DNA of 64,000 nt. Origin: Devosia sp. SD17-2 (GTDB lineage: Bacteria > Pseudomonadota > Alphaproteobacteria > Rhizobiales > Devosiaceae). The position numbers and the translations under genes were made by a program. This document shows positions 14,418 through 53,195 of the stretch, piece after piece; positions within the stretch are counted from its first letter, which is position 1, and each line of letters opens with the position of its first letter. Where the stretch lies: assembly GCF_029201565.1 (NCBI RefSeq), contig NZ_CP104002.1:3427001-3491000 (forward strand), written 5' to 3'. The notes under the pieces are model-generated. The model saw only the letters and a list, made by a program, of their open reading frames with translations, was not told the DNA's origin and did not search any database.

Positions 14418-14636
14418 TCCCCTCCCCTCACCCTAACCCTCTCCCCGGAGGGGCGAGGGGATTGGGCCGGTGGGTGTGGACAGCGCGAAGTGCCAACCCA
14501 GCCAGCCATTCGAGAGCAGCTCTCATGGCCTTCTTCGCTCAAATCGCTTCACTGGAGCGATTTGCCTTCCGGCGCTGGGAAGCATCTTCTGCTTGCCCTT
14601 GGGGCTTGGGTCGTGCATCACGCCGGAAGGTTCAGC
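14418..14636 (+). repeat. Palindromic repeat plus nested ~80-bp stem-loop element
   Basis: The 341-base gap between gshA and purD holds a standard copy (14418-14478, CCCCTCACCCTAACCCTCTC with GGAGGGGCGAGGGG and GGCCGGTGGGTG). About 25 bases on comes a copy of the longer element (about 14502-14582): GCCATTCGAGAGCAGCTCTC-type hairpin, then CAAATCGCT...AGCGATTTG. The remainder (14583-14636) is related to the tail seen at the other copies but diverged. Confidence 0.75.
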
Positions 14637-19521: not shown

Positions 19522-19720
19522 CACCCCTCACCCTAGCCCTCTCCCCGGAGGGGCGAGGGGACCGGGCGGTGGGTGGGAGAGTTTGGTGCAGGAGCATGAA
19601 GACCCCCTCCTAGCCTCCCCCTGGTGGGGGGAGGGACAAGATCGGTGGATGGGAGGGGCATTGCGAAAGACTTCACCCTTCACCCTCCCCCCCGAGGGGG
19701 GAGGGGATCAGATCGAGATG
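19522..19720 (+). repeat. Three palindromic repeat copies between mutL and the VOC gene
   Basis: Copies at about 19522-19578 (CCCCTCACCCTAGCCCTCTC, GGAGGGGCGAGGGG), 19600-19650 (CCCCCTCCTAGCCTCCCCCT, GGTGGGGGGAGGGA) and 19670-19720 (CACCCTTCACCCTCCCCCC, GAGGGGGGAGGGG), each ending in a GATCGGTGG- or GATCGAGATGG-like tail. All are in the same orientation. Confidence 0.8.
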
Positions 19721-21306: not shown

Positions 21307-21618
21307 GGCCCCCTCAACCTAGCCCTCTCCCTCGAGGGGAGAGGGGATTGGGCCGGTGGGTGTGAAGCCGACAGGGCTCTTGTATCTGGAGTTGTATAGG
21401 TGGGGCGGGAGCACCCCCACCTAGCCTCCCCCTGGTAGGGGGAGGGATTGGGCCGGTGGGTGGGGCGGGGTTCGGGGGATACTGGGGGCGCCCGTGCGCG
21501 CCAAGCCCCCCCACCCCAACCCTCCCCACGGAGGGGGAGGGAGACCGGCCGGTGGGTGTGGCACGACCTCATCCTCAATCCCTCCCCCATCAAGGGGAGG
21601 GAGGCAGGCCGGTGAGTG
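21307..21618 (+). repeat. Four consecutive palindromic repeat copies
   Basis: The 328-base convergent gap between the VOC-hydrolase gene and the pyrophosphatase is almost wholly repeats: 21307-21364, 21412-21463, 21504-21560 and 21567-21618. Each has C-rich left arm, G-rich right arm and a GGCCGGTGGGTG or GGCCGGTGAGTG tail in the same orientation. No gene is seen in the gap. Confidence 0.85.
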
Positions 21619-24954: not shown

Positions 24955-25070
24955 TCCCCACCTAGCCTCCCCCCTGAGAGGGGGAGGAACAGATCGAGTG
25001 TGTCGCGACGATTGTGAGCCACTTGCCCGCCCCTCCCCCTCTCAGGGGGAGGCTCGGTGGGGGTACCACC
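24955..25070. repeat. Two palindromic repeats in opposite orientation
   Basis: A forward copy (24955-24999, CCCCACCTAGCCTCCCCCC then GAGAGGGGGAGG) and a reverse copy (25031-25063, CCTCCCCCTCTCAGGGGGAG then GCTCGGTGGGGG) in the zwf-pgl gap. Being inside an operon, they would be transcribed. Confidence 0.75.
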
Positions 25071-28377: not shown

Positions 28378-28502
28378 CACCCCCACCCCCACCCGGCCAC
28401 TCGAGCATAGCTCTCGTGGCCTTCTTGGCTCGAAAGGCTCCACCGAGCCTTTCGTCCTTTGGACCGCCGCGAAGCCCCCGAGAAGGGGGAGGAGGAGATC
28501 GG
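28378..28502 (+). repeat. Palindromic repeat split by the nested ~80-bp stem-loop element
   Basis: CACCCCCACCCCCACCC, then GGCCACTCGAGCATAGCTCTC and GTGGCC (stem 1), CGAAAGGCTC-CACC-GAGCCTTTCG (stem 2, perfect), a CCTTTGGACCGCCGCGAAGCC spacer, then the right arm CCCGAGAAGGGGGAGGAGGAG. It lies between the convergent cobU and cobD genes. Confidence 0.8.
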
Positions 28503-32267: not shown

Positions 32268-32397
32268 TCATCCCCCACCCCAACCCTCCCCACGGAGGGG
32301 GAGGGAGTGGCGTCTGTGATCTTGGCGGGTTTGGAAGGCTAGTCCAAACTCCCACCCCCACCTAGCCTCCCCCTGATAGGGGGAGGGACGCATCGAT
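32268..32397 (+). repeat. Two palindromic repeat copies between cobA and cobB
   Basis: Copies at 32268-32310 (CCCCCACCCCAACCCTCCCC, ACGGAGGGGGAGGGAG) and 32350-32397 (CCCCCACCTAGCCTCCCCCT, GATAGGGGGAGGGAC). Both are in the forward orientation although the flanking genes are on the minus strand. Confidence 0.8.
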
Positions 32398-36160: not shown

Positions 36161-36356
36161 CCCCCTCCTAACTAGCCATTCGAGCATAGCTCTCATGGCC
36201 TTCTCACCTAAAATCGCTCCACCGGAGCGATTTTGCCTTCGGCCGTTTCAAAGCCTCTGAGGAAGGGGGAGGGACAGATCGCGTTTGGGGCATTGTCGGC
36301 GGTCAGCCACGATGGGCCCCTCCCCCTTATTCAGGGGGAGGTCGGGTGGGGGTTGT
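36161..36356. repeat. Repeat split by nested stem-loop element, plus a reverse repeat copy
   Basis: 36161-36284: CACCCCCTCCTAACTAGCC, stem 1 (GCCATTCGAGCATAGCTCTC, ATGGCC), stem 2 AAAATCGCTCC-ACC-GGAGCGATTTT, CCTTCGGCCGTTTCAAAGCC, then the right arm AGGAAGGGGGAGGGACAG. 36313-36356: a reverse-orientation simple copy (CCCTCCCCCTTATTCAGGGG, GAGGTCGGGTGGGGG). Lies in the convergent gap before the cobO stop. Confidence 0.8.
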
Positions 36357-37007: not shown

Positions 37008-37570
37008 TGGAGGCGCTCCGCGTGTTCGATGATCAATTGGGCCGCGCGTTCGGGCGGCAGAATGGTGGTGTCGAGATCGAGCCGGTTCGGGTGCTCGATC
37101 CGCAAGATGGGACGACGCTGGCGGACGAGGGCGGCGCCGGCGGCATCGGTCATCTTGAGACGTTCCTCACGCTCGGGGCTCGGAATGCGTTCGTCGTGAG
37201 CCGCACCCGACGCCGTGAGGATGACGGGGATGAAGGTGGCACCGCGTTTTCGCGACACTTCAAGCACCTCGGCAAAGGCCTCGTGGTCGAGGGGATCGTC
37301 TTCCATCAGGGCATTTGTGAGCACGAAGCTGGCGTCGGGGCGGGCGATCTCGGTCATGGCCCGAAGCGCCTCGCGGCGGATGGTCATGATGATGTCCCAG
37401 GCGCTGTCGGGGATGGGAGAAGTGCCATCCTCGCGGATCAGCGAGAAGACGATGTTATTGGCCAGATGATTGTCGAAGAGGCGCGCCTCCGTGATGGCGC
37501 AGATCTCCTTGGCGATCGTGAGCTTGCCGACGCCATAGTGGCCGATGAGATAGATGATGGTATTGTTCAT
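37004..37570 (-). CDS. P-loop NTPase/kinase-like protein inside the cobalamin operon, function unknown
   Basis: 188 residues with a Walker A at the very N-terminus (IIYLIGHYGVGKLTIAKEI) and the layout of a small nucleoside/shikimate-kinase-like fold (RLFDNHLANNIVFSL, VLTNALMEDDPLDHEAF, RRPILRIEHPNRLDLDT at the end). No standard cobalamin step is assigned to such a protein. The start overlaps the cobN stop by 4 bases and the stop overlaps the cobO start by 4 bases, so it is translationally coupled to both. It may be a passenger or an accessory kinase/chaperone in this pathway. Confidence 0.8.
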   Translation of the reverse strand: MNNTIIYLIGHYGVGKLTIAKEICAITEARLFDNHLANNIVFSLIREDGTSPIPDSAWDIIMTIRREALRAMTEIARPDASFVLTNALMEDDPLDHEAFAEVLEVSRKRGATFIPVILTASGAAHDERIPSPEREERLKMTDAAGAALVRQRRPILRIEHPNRLDLDTTILPPERAAQLIIEHAERLQ

Positions 37571-40500
37571 GCTTCCCCCTCGAGGAAAGCATAGACGGAG
37601 TTGGAACGGGGCGACCAGAGACCGCGCTGCCGGGCGTCGCGGAACTTTTCGATGAGCTCGTCATAGCCATAGCGATTGACCGATTTCAGCCAGTCGCGGA
37701 TGGCGTCGTTTTCGACGAAGGCTTCGAAGGCGAGATCAAAGTGGTGGGTTTTCACCGCGCCGGTGGTGGCGGCGTAGGCGAACATGAAATCGACCGTGGC
37801 AATGATTTCGAAGGCGCCGCGATAGCCGTGGCGCTGCATGCCGGCGATCCATTTTGGATTGACGACGCGGGAGCGCATGACGTGGGAGATTTCCTGTTCC
37901 AGCGTCCGGATTTTTGGGGTTTCCGGGCGGGAATGGTCGTTGTGATAGGCGGCAGGCTTGTGGCCGGAAAGGGTTTCGGCGGCGGCGGAAAGGCCACCCT
38001 CGAACTGGTAGTAATTGTCGCTGTCGAGGAGGTCGTGCTCGCGATTGTCCTGATTGTGGAGGACCGCGTCGATCTGGCCGAGGCGGGCGGCGAAGCGGTC
38101 CTGGAGGGGGATGCCATCGGCCTTGGCGCCATAGGCATATTGCCCCCAGCGCAGGAACTGGTTGGCAAGATCGGCCTTTTCGGACCAATTGCCGTTGTCG
38201 ATCAGCTGGCCGAGACCGGCGCCATATGTGCCCGGTTTTGAGCCGAAAATACGCGCGCCAGATTCGAGGGAGGCCTCGGCCTCGGATTTTCCGGCGGCCA
38301 TGAGGCCAAGGGCTTCGGTGCGCATGCGGGCGGCGATGGGGTTGTCTTCCTCCGGCTCGTCGAGCGCACCGACGGCGCGGATGGCGCGATCGAACAGGGC
38401 GATCTGGGCCGGGAAGGCGTCGCGGAAGAAGCCGGAAATGCGCAGGGTGACGTCGACACGCGGGCGGCCGAGTTTTGCCAGGGGCACGATTTCATAGCCG
38501 GAGACGCGCAGAGAGCCCGGATCCCAGGTGGGTTTCGCGCCGATGAGCGCGAGGGCCTGGGCGATGTCATCGCCGCCGGTGCGCATATTGGCCGTGCCCC
38601 AGACCGACAGGGCCACGGATTTGAGATAATGCCCGTGGTCCTGGAGGTGGCGGAGGACGAGGCTTTCGGCGGACTTTTTGCCGAGTTCCCAGGCGCTGGG
38701 CGTGGGGACGGCGCGGGCATCGACGGAATAGAAATTTCGCCCGGTGGGCAGGACATCGAGCCGGCCACGCGAGGGCGCGCCGGATGGACCGGGGGCGATG
38801 AACTTGCCATCGAGACCGGCAAGGAAGGCCGCCATTTCGGCGGGGCCGGACGCGGCGAGGCGCGGCAGGATCAGGGTTTTTACCGTGTCGAGGACGGCGC
38901 TTGTGGCGGTCCACTCGGGGGGACAGGCCAGCGTGCCAGTGACGAGGTCGGCGGCGAGGGCTTCGAGGTGCTCGAGGATGTCGCCGATGGTGCGGGGTTT
39001 GGAGCGCTCAGACCCCCACCTAGCCTCCCCCTGGGAGGGGGAGGGACTGGCCGGTGAAACCGGCATGATCTGGGGCCCGGTCCAGGGGGTGCCGAGTTCG
39101 GCGGTGAGGGGATCGACGCCGAGTTTGAGGTCGTCGGCTAGGGCGCGGATGAGGGAGTTTTCGGCAGGGCTGTCGCCGCGGGTAATGCGGGCAAGGGCCA
39201 CGGCGAGATCGCGCTGGAGAGCACCCTCGGGCGACTGGCCGAAAATGTGGAGGCCATCGCGGATCTGGGCTTCCTTGAGGTCGCAGAGGAAGTTGTCGAT
39301 CTTGATGAGCGCCTCGGTCTCGTCCTCGGGCAGGACGATATCTGTGTCGAGGCGGCTGTCCCTGGTGAAATCGAGAATGCGGCGCTTGAGATCGGCCAGG
39401 CGCCGGCGATCCATGCCGGAGGCAGCGTAATATTCGTCGAGCAGCGCCTCGAGGTCCTTGAGAGGACCATAGGTTTCGGCGCGAGTGAGCGGGGGCACGA
39501 GGTGGTCGATGATGACCGCGCCGGTGCGGCGCTTGGCCTGGGTGCCCTCGCCCGGATCGTTGACAATGAAGGGATAAAGATGGGGCAGCTGGCCCCAGAG
39601 CGCGTCGGGATAGCAATCGGCGTCCAGCGCCGTGGCTTTGCCGGGCAGCCATTCGAGCGTGCCGTGCTTGCCATTGTGCACAAGGGCATGGGCGCCGAAC
39701 TTGTGGCGCAGCCAGAGATAGGCGGCGATATAGGCGTGGGGCGGGACCAGCGCCGGATCATGATAGCTCTCGGTTTCGTCAAGCTGATAGCCGCGCGCAG
39801 GCTGGAGCAGGAGCACGATATTGCCGAAGCGGTGCGCAGGGAGGTGGAAGGCGCCGTCGCGGATGAAGGGATCGGTCGCGGGATCGCCCCAACGGGTGGT
39901 GACGGCCTCGCGGGTTTCCTCGGGCAGCGCTGCGAAGAGTTCGGCATAGCGCGCGAGTGGGAGGATGGCAGCGGAAGTGCCGCGCTGGGGATTGGCGTTG
40001 GTGGGGCCGGACTGAAGGAGATCTATCAGATTGGCGGAAGTGGAGGGGAAGGCCCCCTCACCCGTCGGCTGCGCCGCCGACCTCTCCCCCGAAGGGAGAG
40101 GTGAAGACAGATCGTAGCCGGCGCGCTCGAGCTCGGCGAGCATGCGGACGGTGCTTTCGGGGGCGTCGTAGCCGACGCCGTTAGCGAGGCGACCGTCGCG
40201 GATGGGGTAATTGGCGAGGACGAAGGCCACGCGGCGCTCGGCGCGCGGGGTGGCGCGGAGGATGGCCCAGTTCTTGGCCAGCTGCACCGCGCGGGATATG
40301 CCGGAGGCATCGGGGGCGTAGGCGGTGAGCGGGCACTGGGTGCGCTCGTGCCAGACGGCGTCAGCCTTGTGACCCACCAAGAGCCCGCCGATGCGGCCAT
40401 CGACTTCGGGCATGACGAGATACATCGCCATGTCCTTTGACGAGAGGCCCTGGCTATCGGCGGCCCACTGAGCCTCAGAGCGACCGGACTGGATCAGCTG

Positions 40501-41454
40501 GATGACCGGCGCATCGGTGCCGGCGAAGGGATTTGATTTCTCGTCGAGATCGGCGATCCCTAGCGCGAAGGCGGTGAGATTGAGAATGGCCGCGGGCGGG
40601 AAGGCGGCGATCGCGTTCTGGACGAAGCGGACGCAGGCGGCTTCCTTGAGGGAGGAAACGAGCAGCGGCACCGGGGCGAGGCCCTGGGCTTCGAGCTCGG
40701 CAATGAGGGCTTCGAGCGTGGCGGTGCCGGCGCCTTCGAGGGCGGCGCGGTAGAAGAGGATGGGGGTGTAGGCGCTACCGGGCTCCGCCTGAGAGGGGGA
40801 GGAGCCGGCCGGTGGGCGTTGGTGCAAAGCCCGCAAACCGGCTTCGTCGGTCATGCCAGATGTGGGGTGCCAGAGGCCGAAGCGGGGGAAGGGCTTAGGG
40901 GTGGTATTGGAGAGCAAGGCCCCCTCACCCGGCTGCTGGGCAGCCGACCTCTCCCCCTCAGGGAGAGGTGAAGAGGCGCCGAGCGCCTCGAATGCGGCGA
41001 GGATCGCGTCGGCGTTGGCGGGGCCGCCGGCGACGAAGAGGTGGTGGAGGGCGAGCCAGTCGTCGGGGTGAATGGTTGAGCGGGACTGCAGGATCGGGTC
41101 GGGATTGGCGTCGCCCGGCAGGAGGGCGAGCGGGATCTTGCGGTTGGCGCAGAGGGCGGTGATTTCGTCGACGCCATATTGGAAATAGGCGGCGCCGCCG
41201 ATGAGGCGGAGGACGACGAGGCGCGCATGGGAGGCGGTCTGGTCGAGCCACATGTCGACCGAGAGATTGTTGGCGAGGCGCAGGAGATTGGCGAGGCGGA
41301 GTTCATCCTCCCCTGCTCGATCGGCGGCAGCGGCCAGCATGGCCAGTTCGCTATCGGCGGAGCTGGCAAAGATCAGCGCGCCGGGGCGCTGGGCAAGGTC
41401 AATGGCCTCGCCTTCCTGCTGGATGGCGCCGGCCTGGGCGGAGAGGAGATGCAT
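37567..41454 (-). CDS. cobN: Cobaltochelatase subunit CobN, with in-frame repeat insertions
   Basis: Large subunit of the aerobic ATP-dependent cobaltochelatase that inserts Co2+ into hydrogenobyrinic a,c-diamide with CobS and CobT (not in this window). 1,295 residues from ATG 41454, which shares an A with the upstream TGA; GTG 41457 is an alternative. Conserved segments include RLIGGAAYFQYGVDEI, the VHNGKHGTLEWLPGKA-like region, FGAHALVHNGKHG, LPHLYPFIVNDPGEGTQAKR and, near the C-terminus, VNPKWIAGMQRHGYRGAFE. Four stretches (about residues 160-180, 211-226, 447-468, 799-815) are translated palindromic repeats. Framed by membrane and P-loop genes. Confidence 0.95.
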   Translation of the reverse strand: MHLLSAQAGAIQQEGEAIDLAQRPGALIFASSADSELAMLAAAADRAGEDELRLANLLRLANNLSVDMWLDQTASHARLVVLRLIGGAAYFQYGVDEITALCANRKIPLALLPGDANPDPILQSRSTIHPDDWLALHHLFVAGGPANADAILAAFEALGASSPLPEGERSAAQQPGEGALLSNTTPKPFPRFGLWHPTSGMTDEAGLRALHQRPPAGSSPSQAEPGSAYTPILFYRAALEGAGTATLEALIAELEAQGLAPVPLLVSSLKEAACVRFVQNAIAAFPPAAILNLTAFALGIADLDEKSNPFAGTDAPVIQLIQSGRSEAQWAADSQGLSSKDMAMYLVMPEVDGRIGGLLVGHKADAVWHERTQCPLTAYAPDASGISRAVQLAKNWAILRATPRAERRVAFVLANYPIRDGRLANGVGYDAPESTVRMLAELERAGYDLSSPLPSGERSAAQPTGEGAFPSTSANLIDLLQSGPTNANPQRGTSAAILPLARYAELFAALPEETREAVTTRWGDPATDPFIRDGAFHLPAHRFGNIVLLLQPARGYQLDETESYHDPALVPPHAYIAAYLWLRHKFGAHALVHNGKHGTLEWLPGKATALDADCYPDALWGQLPHLYPFIVNDPGEGTQAKRRTGAVIIDHLVPPLTRAETYGPLKDLEALLDEYYAASGMDRRRLADLKRRILDFTRDSRLDTDIVLPEDETEALIKIDNFLCDLKEAQIRDGLHIFGQSPEGALQRDLAVALARITRGDSPAENSLIRALADDLKLGVDPLTAELGTPWTGPQIMPVSPASPSPSQGEARWGSERSKPRTIGDILEHLEALAADLVTGTLACPPEWTATSAVLDTVKTLILPRLAASGPAEMAAFLAGLDGKFIAPGPSGAPSRGRLDVLPTGRNFYSVDARAVPTPSAWELGKKSAESLVLRHLQDHGHYLKSVALSVWGTANMRTGGDDIAQALALIGAKPTWDPGSLRVSGYEIVPLAKLGRPRVDVTLRISGFFRDAFPAQIALFDRAIRAVGALDEPEEDNPIAARMRTEALGLMAAGKSEAEASLESGARIFGSKPGTYGAGLGQLIDNGNWSEKADLANQFLRWGQYAYGAKADGIPLQDRFAARLGQIDAVLHNQDNREHDLLDSDNYYQFEGGLSAAAETLSGHKPAAYHNDHSRPETPKIRTLEQEISHVMRSRVVNPKWIAGMQRHGYRGAFEIIATVDFMFAYAATTGAVKTHHFDLAFEAFVENDAIRDWLKSVNRYGYDELIEKFRDARQRGLWSPRSNSVYAFLEGEA
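39011..39056 (+). repeat. Palindromic repeat inside cobN, copy 1
   Basis: ACCCCCACCTAGCCTCCCCC, then GGGAGGGGGAGGGACTGGCC. Read on the cobN strand it encodes SPASPSPSQGEARWGSE (about residues 799-815) and keeps the frame. Flanking CobN sequence is conserved on both sides. Confidence 0.85.
40049..40113 (+). repeat. Palindromic repeat inside cobN, copy 2
   Basis: AAGGCCCCCTCACCCGTCGG, CTGCGCCGCCGACCTCTCCC and GAAGGGAGAGGTGAAGACAG. On the cobN strand it encodes LSSPLPSGERSAAQPTGEGA (about residues 447-468), in frame. Confidence 0.85.
40775..40822 (+). repeat. Palindromic repeat inside cobN, copy 3
   Basis: A shorter copy: CTACCGGGCTCCGCCTGAGA then GGGGGAGGAGCCGGCCGGTG. It encodes RPPAGSSPSQAEPGSA (about residues 211-226) in frame. 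Confidence 0.75.
40915..40975 (+). repeat. Palindromic repeat inside cobN, copy 4
   Basis: AAGGCCCCCTCACCCGGCTG, CTGGGCAGCCGACCTCTCCC, CTCAGGGAGAGGTGAAG. It encodes SSPLPEGERSAAQQPGEGAL (about residues 160-180), nearly the same peptide as copy 2. Confidence 0.85.
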
Positions 41455-41897
41455 CACGACGGTCTTTTACGAAATGGAAGAGCGGTCGCCGTCAGCGCTA
41501 TGGCGCCAGCCCAGGCGCCAAGCGCTGTGATCGGCATGGCTACAGTCAGCCGGTTCTCGAAGGTCGAGACGACGATGATGATGCCCAGCACACCGCTGAT
41601 GGCGCCCAGGCCAAGGCAAAGCGGGATGAGTTTTGCAGGGCTCCAGTGGCTCACCGCGGGATAGACTGCCCAATAGGCGAAGGCGGCCAGCATGGCCGGG
41701 ACGAGGCCGAAGAGATAGCCGAAGCTGAGGATGACGAGGGAGAACTCAGGGTCAGCGAGAAAAACTTCATCCGGGGGATCGGCGAGAAAAAGCCCGCCGA
41801 CGCCCAGGATGGTGCCCACCAGGGGGCCTAGAAACACAATCGCCGCGAGGCGCGTGCCGCTTGGCCGGTTGTCGGCCCTGGTGGGAGTTTTGGTCAC
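41454..41897 (-). CDS. Small integral membrane protein in the cobalamin operon, function unknown
   Basis: 147 residues, ATG 41897, with four predicted membrane helices (about residues 18-40, 53-80, 87-108, 118-138) and a basic tail FRKRPS. It has no His-rich metal loop and no family I recognise. The start overlaps the cobW stop by 4 bases and its TGA overlaps the cobN ATG, so it is coupled to both and lies under the same riboswitch. A role in cobalt or corrinoid handling is inference from position only. Confidence 0.8.
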   Translation of the reverse strand: MTKTPTRADNRPSGTRLAAIVFLGPLVGTILGVGGLFLADPPDEVFLADPEFSLVILSFGYLFGLVPAMLAAFAYWAVYPAVSHWSPAKLIPLCLGLGAISGVLGIIIVVSTFENRLTVAMPITALGAWAGAIALTATALPFRKRPS

Positions 41898-51248: not shown

Positions 51249-53195
51249 TTAGCCCCGCGGCTTACGCGGACCCGTGGGACGGGCGCCACCCGTAGGACGG
51301 GCGCCACCCGTAGGACGGGCACCGCCTGTGGAACGGGCACCACCCGTGGGACGAGCACCGCCTGTGGGGCGCGAACCGCCGGTCGGATGCTGTCCGCCCT
51401 GAGGACGTCCGCCACCACCTGCTGGCCGACCGCCACCCGAAGGACGACCGCCGCCTTCCGGGCGACCCCCGCCGAACGGGCGGCTGCCACCATCGGGACG
51501 ACCGCCACCGGCCGGACGGCCGAAGGGCTTGTCGCCACGCGGCTTGCCATCAAACGGACGGCCGCCACCCGGCTTGCCGCCGAACGGCTTGCGGTCGCCA
51601 CCTGGACGCCCACCTGCCGACGGACGGCCCTGCCCCGGCCGATCGTCGCGGCGCGGGCCGCGATTGTCATCAAACGAGCGCTGCGGGCGATCCCCGCGCG
51701 GACCATTGGACGGACGACCGGCGAAATCACCGCGTGCGGGACGATCACCGCCATCGCGGGGTGGACGCCCCTCGAAGCTGCGCTGCGGACGATCACCGAA
51801 ATTGCCGCGGGCTGGACGGTCACCGAAACCGCCGCGAGCGGGACGATCACCGCCATCACGGGGGGGACGACCCTCAAAGCTACGCTGCGGACGATCACCG
51901 AAATTGCCGCGGGCCGGACGATCACCGAAACCACCACGAGCGGGACGATCACCGCCATCGCGGGACGGACGACCCTCGAAGCTGCGCTGCGGACGGTCAC
52001 CGAAGCCGCCGCGAGCGGGACGATCACCATCCGGACGCGGGCCACGCTGCGGGCGGTCGCCGAAGGACTTCTTGTCACCATATGGCTTCTTGTCACCGTA
52101 CGGCTTCTTGTCGCCATAGGGCTTCTTGTCACCGAACGACTTCTTGTCGCCGTAGGGCTTCTTGTCGCCAAACGACTTGCGGTCGGGCGCTGCGCCATCA
52201 CGAGGGGGACGCGGCGGACGGGGAGCGGGCTTGCCGAAGGAGGAGATCGGCTGATCGTCGCGATCGCGACGCTGCTTGCCGGGGCCCTTGGGTTCGTATT
52301 CCTCGGGGGCGCGACCATCTTCGTCGAAGTGCACGCGGCGCGGGCGACCGGTACGCGGAGCATCGCGACCACCACGGGCAGCACGGAAATCCTCGCGCGG
52401 CGGGGGAGCCGTATCAGGCATCTCGCTGTCGAAATCGACGCCAGCGGCTTCGGCCAGCTTCTTGCCAAGCTGGTCCTTGAGCATCTTGGCGCGGACCATT
52501 TCGACGGCGCCTTCAGCCAGTTCGCCGAGCTGGAACGGACCATAGGACACGCGGATCAGGCGGTTCACCTCAAGGCCAAGCGCGCCGAGCACGTTCTTGA
52601 CTTCGCGGTTCTTGCCTTCGCGCAGGCCGAGCAGCAGCCAGACATTGCTGCCCTGGGAGCGTTCGAGCGTGGCTTCAATCGGGCCATAGGTGATGCCTTC
52701 AACTTCGATGCCATCCTTGAGGGCATCGAGCTGGGCCTGGGTGACGTGACCATAGGCGCGCACGCGATAGCGACGCAGCCAGCCGGTGGAGGGCAGCTCG
52801 AGCACGCGCTTGAGGCCGCCATCATTGGTGAGGAGCAGCAGGCCCTCGGTGTTGATGTCGAGACGGCCGACAGTGACGACGCGGGGGAGGCCCTCTTCGA
52901 GCAGGGCCTCGAAAATGGTCTTGCGACCCTCGGGGTCCTTCTCGGTGACAACCAGGCCAGCGGGCTTGTGGTAGAGCCAGATGCGCGTGCCCTGACGGGC
53001 AGCGAGCTGCTCGCCATCGACAACGATCTTGTCGCGGCTGGTGACGTTAAAGGCCGGGGTCAGTACCTTCTTGCCATTGACGGTGACACGGCCAGCCGTG
53101 ATCCAGCCTTCGGCGTCGCGGCGGGAGCAGAGGCCGGCGCGGGCCATGACCTTGGCAAGACGGTCAGCGATTTCGGGTTTTTCAGTTTCGCTCAT
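51249..53195 (-). CDS. rluB: RluB-type 23S rRNA pseudouridine synthase with long repeat tail
   Basis: Residues 1-~260: S4 RNA-binding domain (MARAGLCSRRDAEGWITAGRVTVNG) and RsuA/RluB catalytic domain with the conserved VGRLDINTEGLLLLTNDG (catalytic Asp) and NVWLLLGLREGKNREVKNV. Start ATG 53195; an upstream frame to 53216 is less likely. The remaining ~390 residues are low complexity: KKPYGDKKSFGD repeats, then arginine/glycine/proline-rich RPARGGFGDRPQRSFEGR repeats and a final ARPTGGARPTGG series. Such Arg/Gly tails bind RNA in other proteins; the function here is unknown. Confidence 0.9.
   Translation of the reverse strand: MSETEKPEIADRLAKVMARAGLCSRRDAEGWITAGRVTVNGKKVLTPAFNVTSRDKIVVDGEQLAARQGTRIWLYHKPAGLVVTEKDPEGRKTIFEALLEEGLPRVVTVGRLDINTEGLLLLTNDGGLKRVLELPSTGWLRRYRVRAYGHVTQAQLDALKDGIEVEGITYGPIEATLERSQGSNVWLLLGLREGKNREVKNVLGALGLEVNRLIRVSYGPFQLGELAEGAVEMVRAKMLKDQLGKKLAEAAGVDFDSEMPDTAPPPREDFRAARGGRDAPRTGRPRRVHFDEDGRAPEEYEPKGPGKQRRDRDDQPISSFGKPAPRPPRPPRDGAAPDRKSFGDKKPYGDKKSFGDKKPYGDKKPYGDKKPYGDKKSFGDRPQRGPRPDGDRPARGGFGDRPQRSFEGRPSRDGGDRPARGGFGDRPARGNFGDRPQRSFEGRPPRDGGDRPARGGFGDRPARGNFGDRPQRSFEGRPPRDGGDRPARGDFAGRPSNGPRGDRPQRSFDDNRGPRRDDRPGQGRPSAGGRPGGDRKPFGGKPGGGRPFDGKPRGDKPFGRPAGGGRPDGGSRPFGGGRPEGGGRPSGGGRPAGGGGRPQGGQHPTGGSRPTGGARPTGGARSTGGARPTGGARPTGGARPTGPRKPRG
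51270..52200. repeat. Coding tandem repeats in the rluB tail
   Basis: Three sets: (a) 51270-51375, about 18-base units (GGACGGGCGCCACCCGTAGG) encoding ARPTGG; (b) about 51740-52030, ~108-base units encoding SFEGRPPRDGGDRPARGGFG, two full copies plus partial ones; (c) 52075-52180, 24-base-type units encoding KPYGDKK/SFGDKK. They are translated and in frame, with near-identical neighbouring units, so they are likely to expand or shrink by slippage or recombination. Confidence 0.85.

What the first reader, a model, noticed from the sequence alone, without database searches (positions are those of the whole stretch)
39011..40975. Palindromic repeats inserted in frame in cobN
Four copies of the window's intergenic repeat family lie inside cobN (39011-39056, 40049-40113, 40775-40822, 40915-40975), each a length that keeps the frame, translating to similar peptides such as SSPLPSGERSAAQPTGEGA. 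This resembles the in-frame palindromic elements of Rickettsia (RPE), where mobile repeats end up encoding extra protein segments. It suggests that these repeats are or were mobile and that CobN tolerates surface insertions at several sites.
Basis: partly seen in the sequence, partly recalled or inferred. Interest (0 to 1): 0.75.

Follow-up and report, generated by a model that had tools for sequence, protein, structure and literature searches.

The report
Mobile palindromes lodged inside cobN
In Devosia bacteria, short mobile hairpin DNA repeats have lodged again and again in the same four flexible loops of the vitamin B12 enzyme CobN without breaking it, sometimes together with a complete DNA-cutting domain, which hints at what may move these repeats.

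Summary
The window is Devosia; cobN (41457-37567, -) is intact and carries four in-frame palindromic inserts. Sites 2 and 4 belong to the window's intergenic family; sites 1 and 3 to a second, two-hairpin 57-nt family dispersed elsewhere in the genome. In 51 Devosia CobN the same four linkers are recurrent landing sites: 121 occupied cases, 113 matching dispersed repeats, at least 81 matching another insert out of phase; 7 species have none. So DNA inserted and in-frame copies survived. CobN's core is constrained (dN/dS 0.05-0.13). No copy tested elsewhere in G000 or G064 scored as inside a gene. New: in 12 genomes site 3 holds an in-frame DUF559 (Vsr-like nuclease) domain between repeats, itself constrained, with a tree that rejects CobN's tree (homing-like). 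Class-wide, 12 of 17 DUF559 genes lie between matching palindromes (controls 0 of 68, 0 of 27), while RAYT transposase is in 3 of 75 genus genomes. I propose that DUF559 nucleases spread these palindromes: inferred, about 0.4. In-frame repeat insertion is a known kind (Rickettsia RPE, intragenic REPs); the reused linkers and embedded nuclease are, as far as I found, new.

The parts
37567..41457 (-). cobN, cobaltochelatase subunit (1296 codons, intact frame; orthologues suggest the start is the ATG at codon 2)
   Evidence: ORF; Pfam PF02514 1169.3 bits; 62 of 75 genus genomes have a match
40918..40974 (-). site 1 insert: 57-nt two-hairpin unit (family A), read as SSPLPEGERSAAQQPGEGA (residues 162-180)
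   Evidence: codon print; hairpins (z -3.12); dispersed copies; insertion against outgroups
40775..40822 (-). site 2 insert: degenerate copy of the window's intergenic family, read as ..PPAGSSPSQAEPGS.. (about residues 212-228); more canonical in the same-species genome G045 (L003)
   Evidence: (D9, I9); hairpin not better than shuffles
40051..40107 (-). site 3 insert: 57-nt two-hairpin unit (family A), read as SSPLPSGERSAAQPTGEGA (residues 451-469); the linker that holds an in-frame DUF559 nuclease domain in 12 other genus genomes
   Evidence: (z -2.75)
39011..39056 (-). site 4 insert: copy of the window's intergenic family, read as SPASPSPSQGEARWG (about residues 801-816)
   Evidence: D3, D6, I3; 50 genome matches at E<=0.001 including itself
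32349..32389 (+). intergenic copy of the site-4 family (reference copy of D3)
   Evidence: 94% to site 4 over 36 nt
21408..21448 (+). intergenic copy of the site-4 family
   Evidence: 93% to site 4 over 46 nt
19597..19637 (+). intergenic copy of the site-4 family
25020..25064 (-). intergenic copy of the site-4 family, inverted
   Evidence: I3, I4, I5

Best explanation
The four segments are insertions of small REP-like palindromic mobile elements. Elements land in DNA irrespective of frame; copies that break a constrained gene are lost, so those seen in genes are in phase, stop-free and in a flexible surface linker. CobN has four such linkers, and in Devosia they have been filled, emptied and refilled by several unrelated palindromic families (SHOWN by alignment, by out-of-phase copies and by empty sites). 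CobN's core stays under purifying selection (SHOWN, dN/dS). The likely engine, INFERRED (about 0.4), is the DUF559/Vsr-like PD-(D/E)XK nuclease, which is found between matching palindromes in much of Alphaproteobacteria and in frame at cobN site 3 in 12 genus genomes. It would cut at or near palindromes or the empty site, and repair would copy the flanking units, with or without the nuclease gene, into the break; recombination between flanking repeats would remove the nuclease and leave an in-frame scar.
For: Outgroup linkers are short; Devosia linkers hold >=9 extra residues in 39, 28, 34 and 20 of 51 CobN, and 113 of these 121 cases match a dispersed repeat; outgroups match in 2 of 36. 81 of 121 have an ungapped same-strand match of >=20 nt to another Devosia insert that is out of phase (98 with gaps allowed, >=25 nt). 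Example: L002 site 1 and L050 site 3, 91% over 56 nt, different frames. Seven of 51 are empty at all four sites, 12 full at all four. Filled/empty pair with closely similar flanks: L049/L033, 690 nt at site 3. Core dN/dS 0.05-0.13 in 7 pairs. In-gene copies elsewhere by a coding score: 0 of 40 other stretches in the 404-kb G000 sample, 0 of 12 family-A loci in G000, 0 of 20 in G064. Inserts coincide with low-pLDDT coil 165-177, 222-224, 457-467, 801-818. DUF559: 91-114 bits inside three CobN; dN/dS 0.11-0.24 in 7 of 8 pairs, one saturated; domain tree rejects the CobN topology (delta lnL 113, p-AU 2.5e-4); 12 changes needed on the CobN tree. Class-wide, matching palindromes flank 12 of 17 DUF559 genes (11 of 15 contexts), control 0 of 68; PIN-gene control 0 of 27. 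RAYT-type transposase in 3 of 75 genus genomes, DUF559 in 60 of 75. In G000 four places of the site-4 family stand just upstream of one of its two DUF559 genes.
Against: No transposition event, target-site duplication or cleavage was observed, and exact junctions cannot be fixed because linker sequence also drifts. In Devosia the DUF559-palindrome association is not independent: the 50 loci examined fall into 6 contexts, one (hydA region) supplying 27 of the 32 positives, and the second largest has 1 of 14. Because the units are palindromes, the flank test cannot by itself tell inverted from direct order: of the 12 class-wide positives the inverted match scores higher in 8 and the direct match in 4. 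Five of 17 have none. Family A is abundant in some genomes and has 0 matches in G005; whether copy number follows DUF559 was not tested. G000's own CobN has no DUF559. Ancient presence plus many losses, or exchange of cobN segments, could mimic homing.
Confidence: 0.8

Rival explanations
1. REPIN/RAYT: the palindromes are ordinary REP doublets moved by an IS200-like tyrosine transposase in trans.
For: Most family-A loci looked at in G064 are inverted pairs: 16 of 20, 14 inward and 2 outward, mostly about 20-25 nt apart, the arrangement that defines REPINs (abstract and passages of PMC3116915).
Against: PF01797 is absent from G000 and present in only 3 of 75 genus genomes; none of the element-rich G016, G033, G064, G028 has it.
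Confidence: 0.1
2. Recombination only: palindromes are no longer mobile, and linkers change by gene conversion or exchange of cobN segments between strains and with intergenic copies.
For: Alleles turn over fast: G000 and G060 CobN (91% identical) carry different peptides at all four sites; tree conflict at site 3 could come from exchange of cobN segments.
Against: Different families fill the same linker, in different frames, which needs some first insertion; the scattered same-site DUF559 (12 changes) and the sometimes filled, sometimes empty hydA site look like insertion.
Confidence: 0.25
3. Protein-level expansion: low-complexity Ser/Pro/Gly linkers grew by slippage or duplication and only look like repeats.
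For: The linkers are Ser/Pro/Gly-rich and change fast.
Against: The same DNA is read out of phase in at least 81 of 121 cases, and dispersed copies lie outside cobN.
Confidence: 0.02
4. Domesticated function: the inserts (or the embedded nuclease) serve CobN, for example as regulated linkers or RNA hairpins that tune translation.
For: Four inserts in one gene; the hairpins would be transcribed; the embedded DUF559 is under purifying selection.
Against: Seven of 51 CobN have no insert; element identity is not conserved between close species; in the one pair with shared inserts (L002/L003) linker dN/dS is 0.50.
Confidence: 0.06
5. DUF559 is a passenger: a repair-type nuclease gene that simply sits in repeat-rich intergenic DNA, with one or two old insertions at cobN site 3 inherited, lost and exchanged.
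For: A Caulobacter DUF559 protein, VsrA, is predicted to be a mismatch-repair endonuclease (summary and passages of PMC12907096); in Devosia most DUF559 loci are a few shared contexts; a single origin of the cobN DUF559 is not excluded.
Against: Matching palindromes abut 12 of 17 genes in 11 of 15 contexts across the class, against 0 of 68 shifted positions and 0 of 27 PIN genes; tree conflict with CobN.
Confidence: 0.4

Closest known systems
Rickettsia palindromic elements (RPE)
   Same: Palindromic DNA inserted in frame in a protein gene, adding a repeat-coded peptide (review passages PMC10969869).
   Different: RPEs are about 150 bp, hit many unrelated genes and encode a conserved peptide; here units are about 35-57 nt, several families and frames are used, and among copies tested only cobN is hit.
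Intragenic GTAG/CGTC REPs (Di Nocera et al. 2013)
   Same: REP units inside ORFs of several species; recB of two Xanthomonas hit at about the same site; CGTC REPs, commonest in alpha-proteobacteria, lack a dedicated transposase (abstract, section 6 and passages of PMC3733652).
   Different: Family A shows no obvious GTAG or CGTC tag (by eye); Devosia and cobN do not occur in that main text; no nuclease is linked to the repeats in the parts I saw.
REPIN/RAYT system
   Same: Inverted doublets with hairpins, extragenic, dispersed (PMC3116915 abstract and passages).
   Different: No RAYT in G000 and in only 3 of 75 genus genomes; in G016 a nuclease gene of another kind occupies the middle of a doublet.
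Homing endonucleases (free-standing or within inteins; PMC3943268 passages) and the ShiLan in-frame insertion
   Same: A nuclease gene at one site of a host gene, patchy, with filled and empty alleles and a tree unlike the host gene's. ShiLan is an unspliced insertion open in the host frame (abstract PMC11855218).
   Different: Here the nuclease itself is read in the host frame (ShiLan's HNH is out of frame), belongs to DUF559, and is bracketed by palindromic repeats; no cleavage shown.
Vsr-like DUF559 proteins of Caulobacter (VsrA)
   Same: Same domain, PD-(D/E)XK superfamily (PMC12907096 passages).
   Different: Interpreted there as mismatch repair linked to cytosine methylation; no association with palindromes appears in the passages I saw.

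Membership tests
Rickettsia palindromic element (RPE) | palindromic element inserted in frame inside a protein gene | tested here: met
Rickettsia palindromic element (RPE) | found in many unrelated genes of the genome | tested here: not met
   only cobN among 44 stretches in 404 kb, 12 family-A loci in G000 and 20 in G064; a sample and a coding score of mine, not whole annotated genomes
Rickettsia palindromic element (RPE) | sequence homology to RPE families | not tested
   no Rickettsia RPE sequence was fetched
REPIN/RAYT | inverted REP doublets with a spacer | tested here: met
   16 of 20 family-A loci in G064; inside cobN of G000 the units are single
REPIN/RAYT | REP-associated tyrosine transposase (PF01797) in the genome | tested here: not met
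   absent in G000; 3 of 75 genus genomes
CGTC-tagged REP (for family A) | 8-9-bp stem with an unpaired CGTC/TGTC/CCTC tag and CCA tail | tested here: inconclusive
   by eye sequences against the text description; no profile was run
Homing endonuclease (for the site-3 DUF559 insert) | recognisable nuclease domain with conserved acidic core | tested here: met
   PF04480 91-114 bits in three; ADF and E-x-DG-x-x-H kept in 12 of 12 (alignment; that these are the catalytic residues is recalled)
Homing endonuclease (for the site-3 DUF559 insert) | same site in different hosts, with empty alleles | tested here: met
Homing endonuclease (for the site-3 DUF559 insert) | history differs from that of the host gene | tested here: met
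   AU test of two topologies; 12 changes
Homing endonuclease (for the site-3 DUF559 insert) | cuts the empty allele and is copied into it | not testable with these tools
   needs biochemistry
Intein | self-splicing (Hint) domain around the nuclease | tested here: not met
   Pfam finds CobN, DUF559 and, in two, a related nuclease model, and no splicing domain, in three fusions

The most novel reading that the evidence does not exclude
A class of bacterial mobile element not described in the literature I could search: pairs of G+C-rich palindromes carrying a DUF559 (Vsr-like) nuclease instead of a transposase, widespread in Alphaproteobacteria, which spreads by homing-type cut-and-repair, leaves nuclease-less doublets and single palindromes, and at cobN lives in frame inside an enzyme that keeps working. 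It would supply a missing mobility factor for transposase-less alpha-proteobacterial palindromes.
Probability: 0.4. Interest if true: 0.87.

Novelty: new variant of a known kind. Interest (0 to 1): 0.74.

Why it matters
It shows one enzyme whose four linkers have been natural landing pads for selfish palindromes across a bacterial genus and beyond, which gives a natural record of insertion and of how new protein segments arise. It also points to a candidate engine, DUF559, for alpha-proteobacterial palindromes; one class of these was reported to have no dedicated transposase (PMC3733652). That open question becomes testable with small purified proteins and defined empty and filled alleles of cobN.

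Tried and rejected
Considered and rejected: protein-level slippage (the same DNA is read out of phase); RAYT as mover; intein; a second in-frame DUF559 in G004 (frame of 1139 aa) proved to be a DUF559 just upstream of an alanyl-tRNA synthetase-like frame, not an insert (gene name recalled).

Weakened by my own checks. (1) I first counted 110 of 121 inserts matching another 'on the other strand or out of phase'; palindromes match their own reverse strand, so I recounted same-strand matches only: 98 (gapped) or 81 (ungapped) of 121. (2) I first counted inverted arms at 22 of 30 Devosia DUF559 loci (controls 0 of 600 and 0 of 120) and 10 of 20 further loci chosen partly for long frames. Clustering the flanks showed only 6 contexts, 27 of the 32 positives being one hydA-region context and 1 of 14 in the next. 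I therefore rest the claim on the class-wide sample: of 28 loci returned I used the 20 with strong matches, dropped 3 truncated by contig ends, and tested 17, in 15 contexts. (3) The same flank test run for direct order had 8-11 positives of 120 in the same-locus control; I do not use it as evidence. (4) Six site-4 matches near a G000 DUF559 gene are four places, two counted on both strands; they are one tandem cluster, so the chance of a cluster that near (about 0.02) is the fair figure, not the binomial one. (5) Linker dN/dS (0.44-0.74) mixes inserts that are not all homologous in six of the seven pairs; only L002/L003 (0.50) share all four sites' elements, so it is weak evidence. The PIN control used 27 of 30 loci.

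The structure model is moderate (mean pLDDT 75.1, pTM 0.65, 14 low segments), so 'insert = low pLDDT' is supportive only. The fold comparison confirmed the CobN/ChlH fold and added nothing on the inserts.

Literature: all 10 searches used. DUF559 with palindromic, with endonuclease and mobile, with inverted repeat (no paper) and with REP/repeats gave nothing linking DUF559 to repeats, judged from the listings; Devosia with palindromic repeat gave 10 listings, none opened. Papers were seen as abstracts, passages or one section only, none whole: PMC3733652 (abstract, section 6, passages), PMC3116915, PMC3943268, PMC12907096 and PMC10969869 (passages), PMC11855218 (abstract and outline). The library lacks most subscription papers.


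Full report
WHAT IS THERE. The window lies at 3427001-3491000 of a one-contig 4.23-Mb genome. A same-species CobN, 97% identical, is in a Devosia sp. assembly (JADGNE010000004). cobN is one open frame of 1296 codons, 41457-37567 minus, and matches the CobN family over 1169 bits. Four palindromic segments lie in it in frame. Sites 1 and 3 are two copies of a 57-nt unit: hairpin 1, CCTCTCCC-loop-GGGAGAGG; hairpin 2, variable but self-complementary; and an end GGTGAGGGGGCC. Sites 2 and 4 belong to the family that also lies between genes of the window. Hairpin energy beats shuffles for sites 1 and 3 only.

THEY ARE INSERTIONS, MADE AT THE DNA LEVEL. I aligned 60 full CobN: 51 Devosia-named (49 of the search tool's own genus, two of a sister genus) and 9 outgroups. 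Outgroup linkers are short; L139 at site 2 (+13) and L105 at site 1 (+5) are the longest deviations. In Devosia the four linkers hold at least 9 extra residues in 39, 28, 34 and 20 of 51. Of these 121 cases 113 match a dispersed repeat (intergenic DNA, or an insert at a different site) at E<=1e-3; outgroup linkers match in 2 of 36. Counting same-strand matches only, because palindromes match their own reverse strand, 81 of 121 have an ungapped match of at least 20 nt that is out of phase, 98 with gaps allowed and at least 25 nt. The threshold and the relatedness of species make these counts descriptive, not a count of events. One element is 91% identical over 56 nt at site 1 of G000 and at site 3 of L050 yet is read in another frame. 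Seven species are empty at all four sites and 12 are full at all four. G000 and G060 CobN are 91% identical but carry different peptides at all four sites. Outside these linkers the alignment shows hardly any insert in Devosia, apart from 10 residues in L014 and L017.

OTHER GENERA. Of 38 further loci from the family, 35 gave a full CobN (three look like earlier records); by my count of the printed lengths 22 of 35 have 9 or more extra residues at site 3 and 12 of 35 at site 1, with similar-looking peptides (not tested at the DNA level). One more CobN (L282, another genus) holds a DUF559 domain.

ONLY COBN, AS FAR AS TESTED. In a 404-kb sample of the genome (window plus 17 stretches of 20 kb) 44 element stretches were found with a library made of cobN inserts and ten window copies; three of the four in cobN pass a 0.15 threshold for coding on both flanks and site 2 scores 0.10; the best other stretch scores 0.04. 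Of 12 family-A loci elsewhere in G000 (16 units), none passes; of 20 family-A loci among the best in G064 (59 matches), none, while its two cobN copies do. The score is a codon-usage measure of mine, not annotation.

THE NUCLEASE. In 12 genus genomes site 3 holds a DUF559 (PF04480) domain between repeat-coded peptides; 62 of 75 genus genomes have a CobN match, and site 3 was not recoverable in every fragmented one. In nine of the 12 the whole CobN is one open frame. Pfam gives 113.5, 90.7 and 107.4 bits in three. ADF and E-x-DG-x-x-H are present in 12 of 12 (alignment), and dN/dS is 0.11-0.24 in seven of eight pairs, at high dS in most. L049 and L033 differ by a 690-nt insert between closely similar flanks. 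On the CobN core tree the trait needs 12 changes, six forced by well-supported branches and no fewer than shuffled labels; three of the 12 rows are only 27% filled and the tree is a quick one. On a DUF559 tree the 12 fall in two groups; one origin is not excluded. The domain tree rejects the CobN topology (delta lnL 113, p-AU 2.5e-4) and the reverse also holds; two topologies were compared, from 12 rows and about 107 and 318 columns. This is what a homing nuclease would show; exchange of cobN segments could also do it.

THE NUCLEASE AND THE PALINDROMES. RAYT-type transposase is in 3 of 75 genus genomes and not in G000; DUF559 is in 60 of 75. Family A occurs largely as inverted doublets: 16 of 20 loci in G064, 14 facing inward, mostly about 20-25 nt apart. 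In G016 a DUF559 gene sits between two such units, inward-facing. In Devosia 32 of 50 DUF559 loci have matching arms, but these are few contexts. In a class-wide sample 12 of 17 usable loci, 11 of 15 contexts, have matching palindromes on both sides next to the domain, against 0 of 68 shifted positions; in 8 of the 12 the inverted match scores higher, in 4 the direct one. PIN genes of the genus give 0 of 27. In G147 the arm is one of 53 dispersed matches, some on both strands of one place. In G000, four places of the site-4 family stand just upstream of one DUF559 gene, and the other gene lies between direct copies of a repeat (80% over 116 nt); the chance of one cluster that near either gene is about 0.02. 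The hydA upstream site shows filled and empty states: 9 of 30 orthologous sites carry DUF559 within 500 nt.

HOW IT PROBABLY WORKS. Shown: repeated DNA insertion into four linkers, survival in frame, constrained host, constrained embedded nuclease, palindrome-DUF559 association. Inferred: the nuclease cuts at palindromes or empty sites and repair copies the flanking units; loss by recombination between repeats leaves scars such as GPKPLPLEGRGWGGG, seen both beside DUF559 inserts and alone at site 3.

PLACE AMONG KNOWN THINGS. In-frame palindromes are known in Rickettsia, and REPs inside ORFs in other bacteria. CGTC REPs, commonest in alpha-proteobacteria, were reported to lack a dedicated transposase; whether family A belongs to them was not settled. 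I found no paper in the library linking DUF559 to repeats. I therefore call the in-cobN palindromes a new variant of a known kind and keep the DUF559-palindrome element as the bold reading.

Noticed in passing
L368-L397, intergenic site upstream of a hydantoinase-like gene (hydA; name recalled, not from a call); G000 copy at G000:C1:87333: A second insertion hot spot: 9 of 30 orthologous sites have a DUF559 gene within 500 nt upstream, others do not, and G000 has a lone palindrome there.
   Followed up: partly
L044 (G062 CobN), site 3: Insert of about 406 residues: several tandem copies of a repeat pair plus a DUF559 domain, all in frame.
   Followed up: partly
L031 (G013 CobN), just before site 3: The stretch before the repeat is read in another frame and returns to frame within the repeat, as if one indel compensates another.
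   Followed up: no
L043, L053, L054 (G004, G052, G002): cobN lies in several frames; decay or sequencing error at hairpins not told apart.
   Followed up: no
L210 (G004:C2): A DUF559 frame directly upstream of, and open into, an alanyl-tRNA synthetase-like frame (name recalled), without flanking inverted repeats.
   Followed up: partly
window 51270-51524 and 51708-52181: Tandem 18-nt and longer repeats (families D1, D4, D5), perhaps coding.
   Followed up: no
window 14497-14573, 28388-28464, 36167-36243: A third dispersed repeat family of about 77 nt (D8), 69-79% alike.
   Followed up: no
L050 site 3; L007, L014, L025 site 2; L013, L029, L030 site 2: Peptides that look like CGTC-type REPs and another common proteobacterial repeat (recalled labels), so the linkers seem to take further unrelated families.
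   Followed up: no
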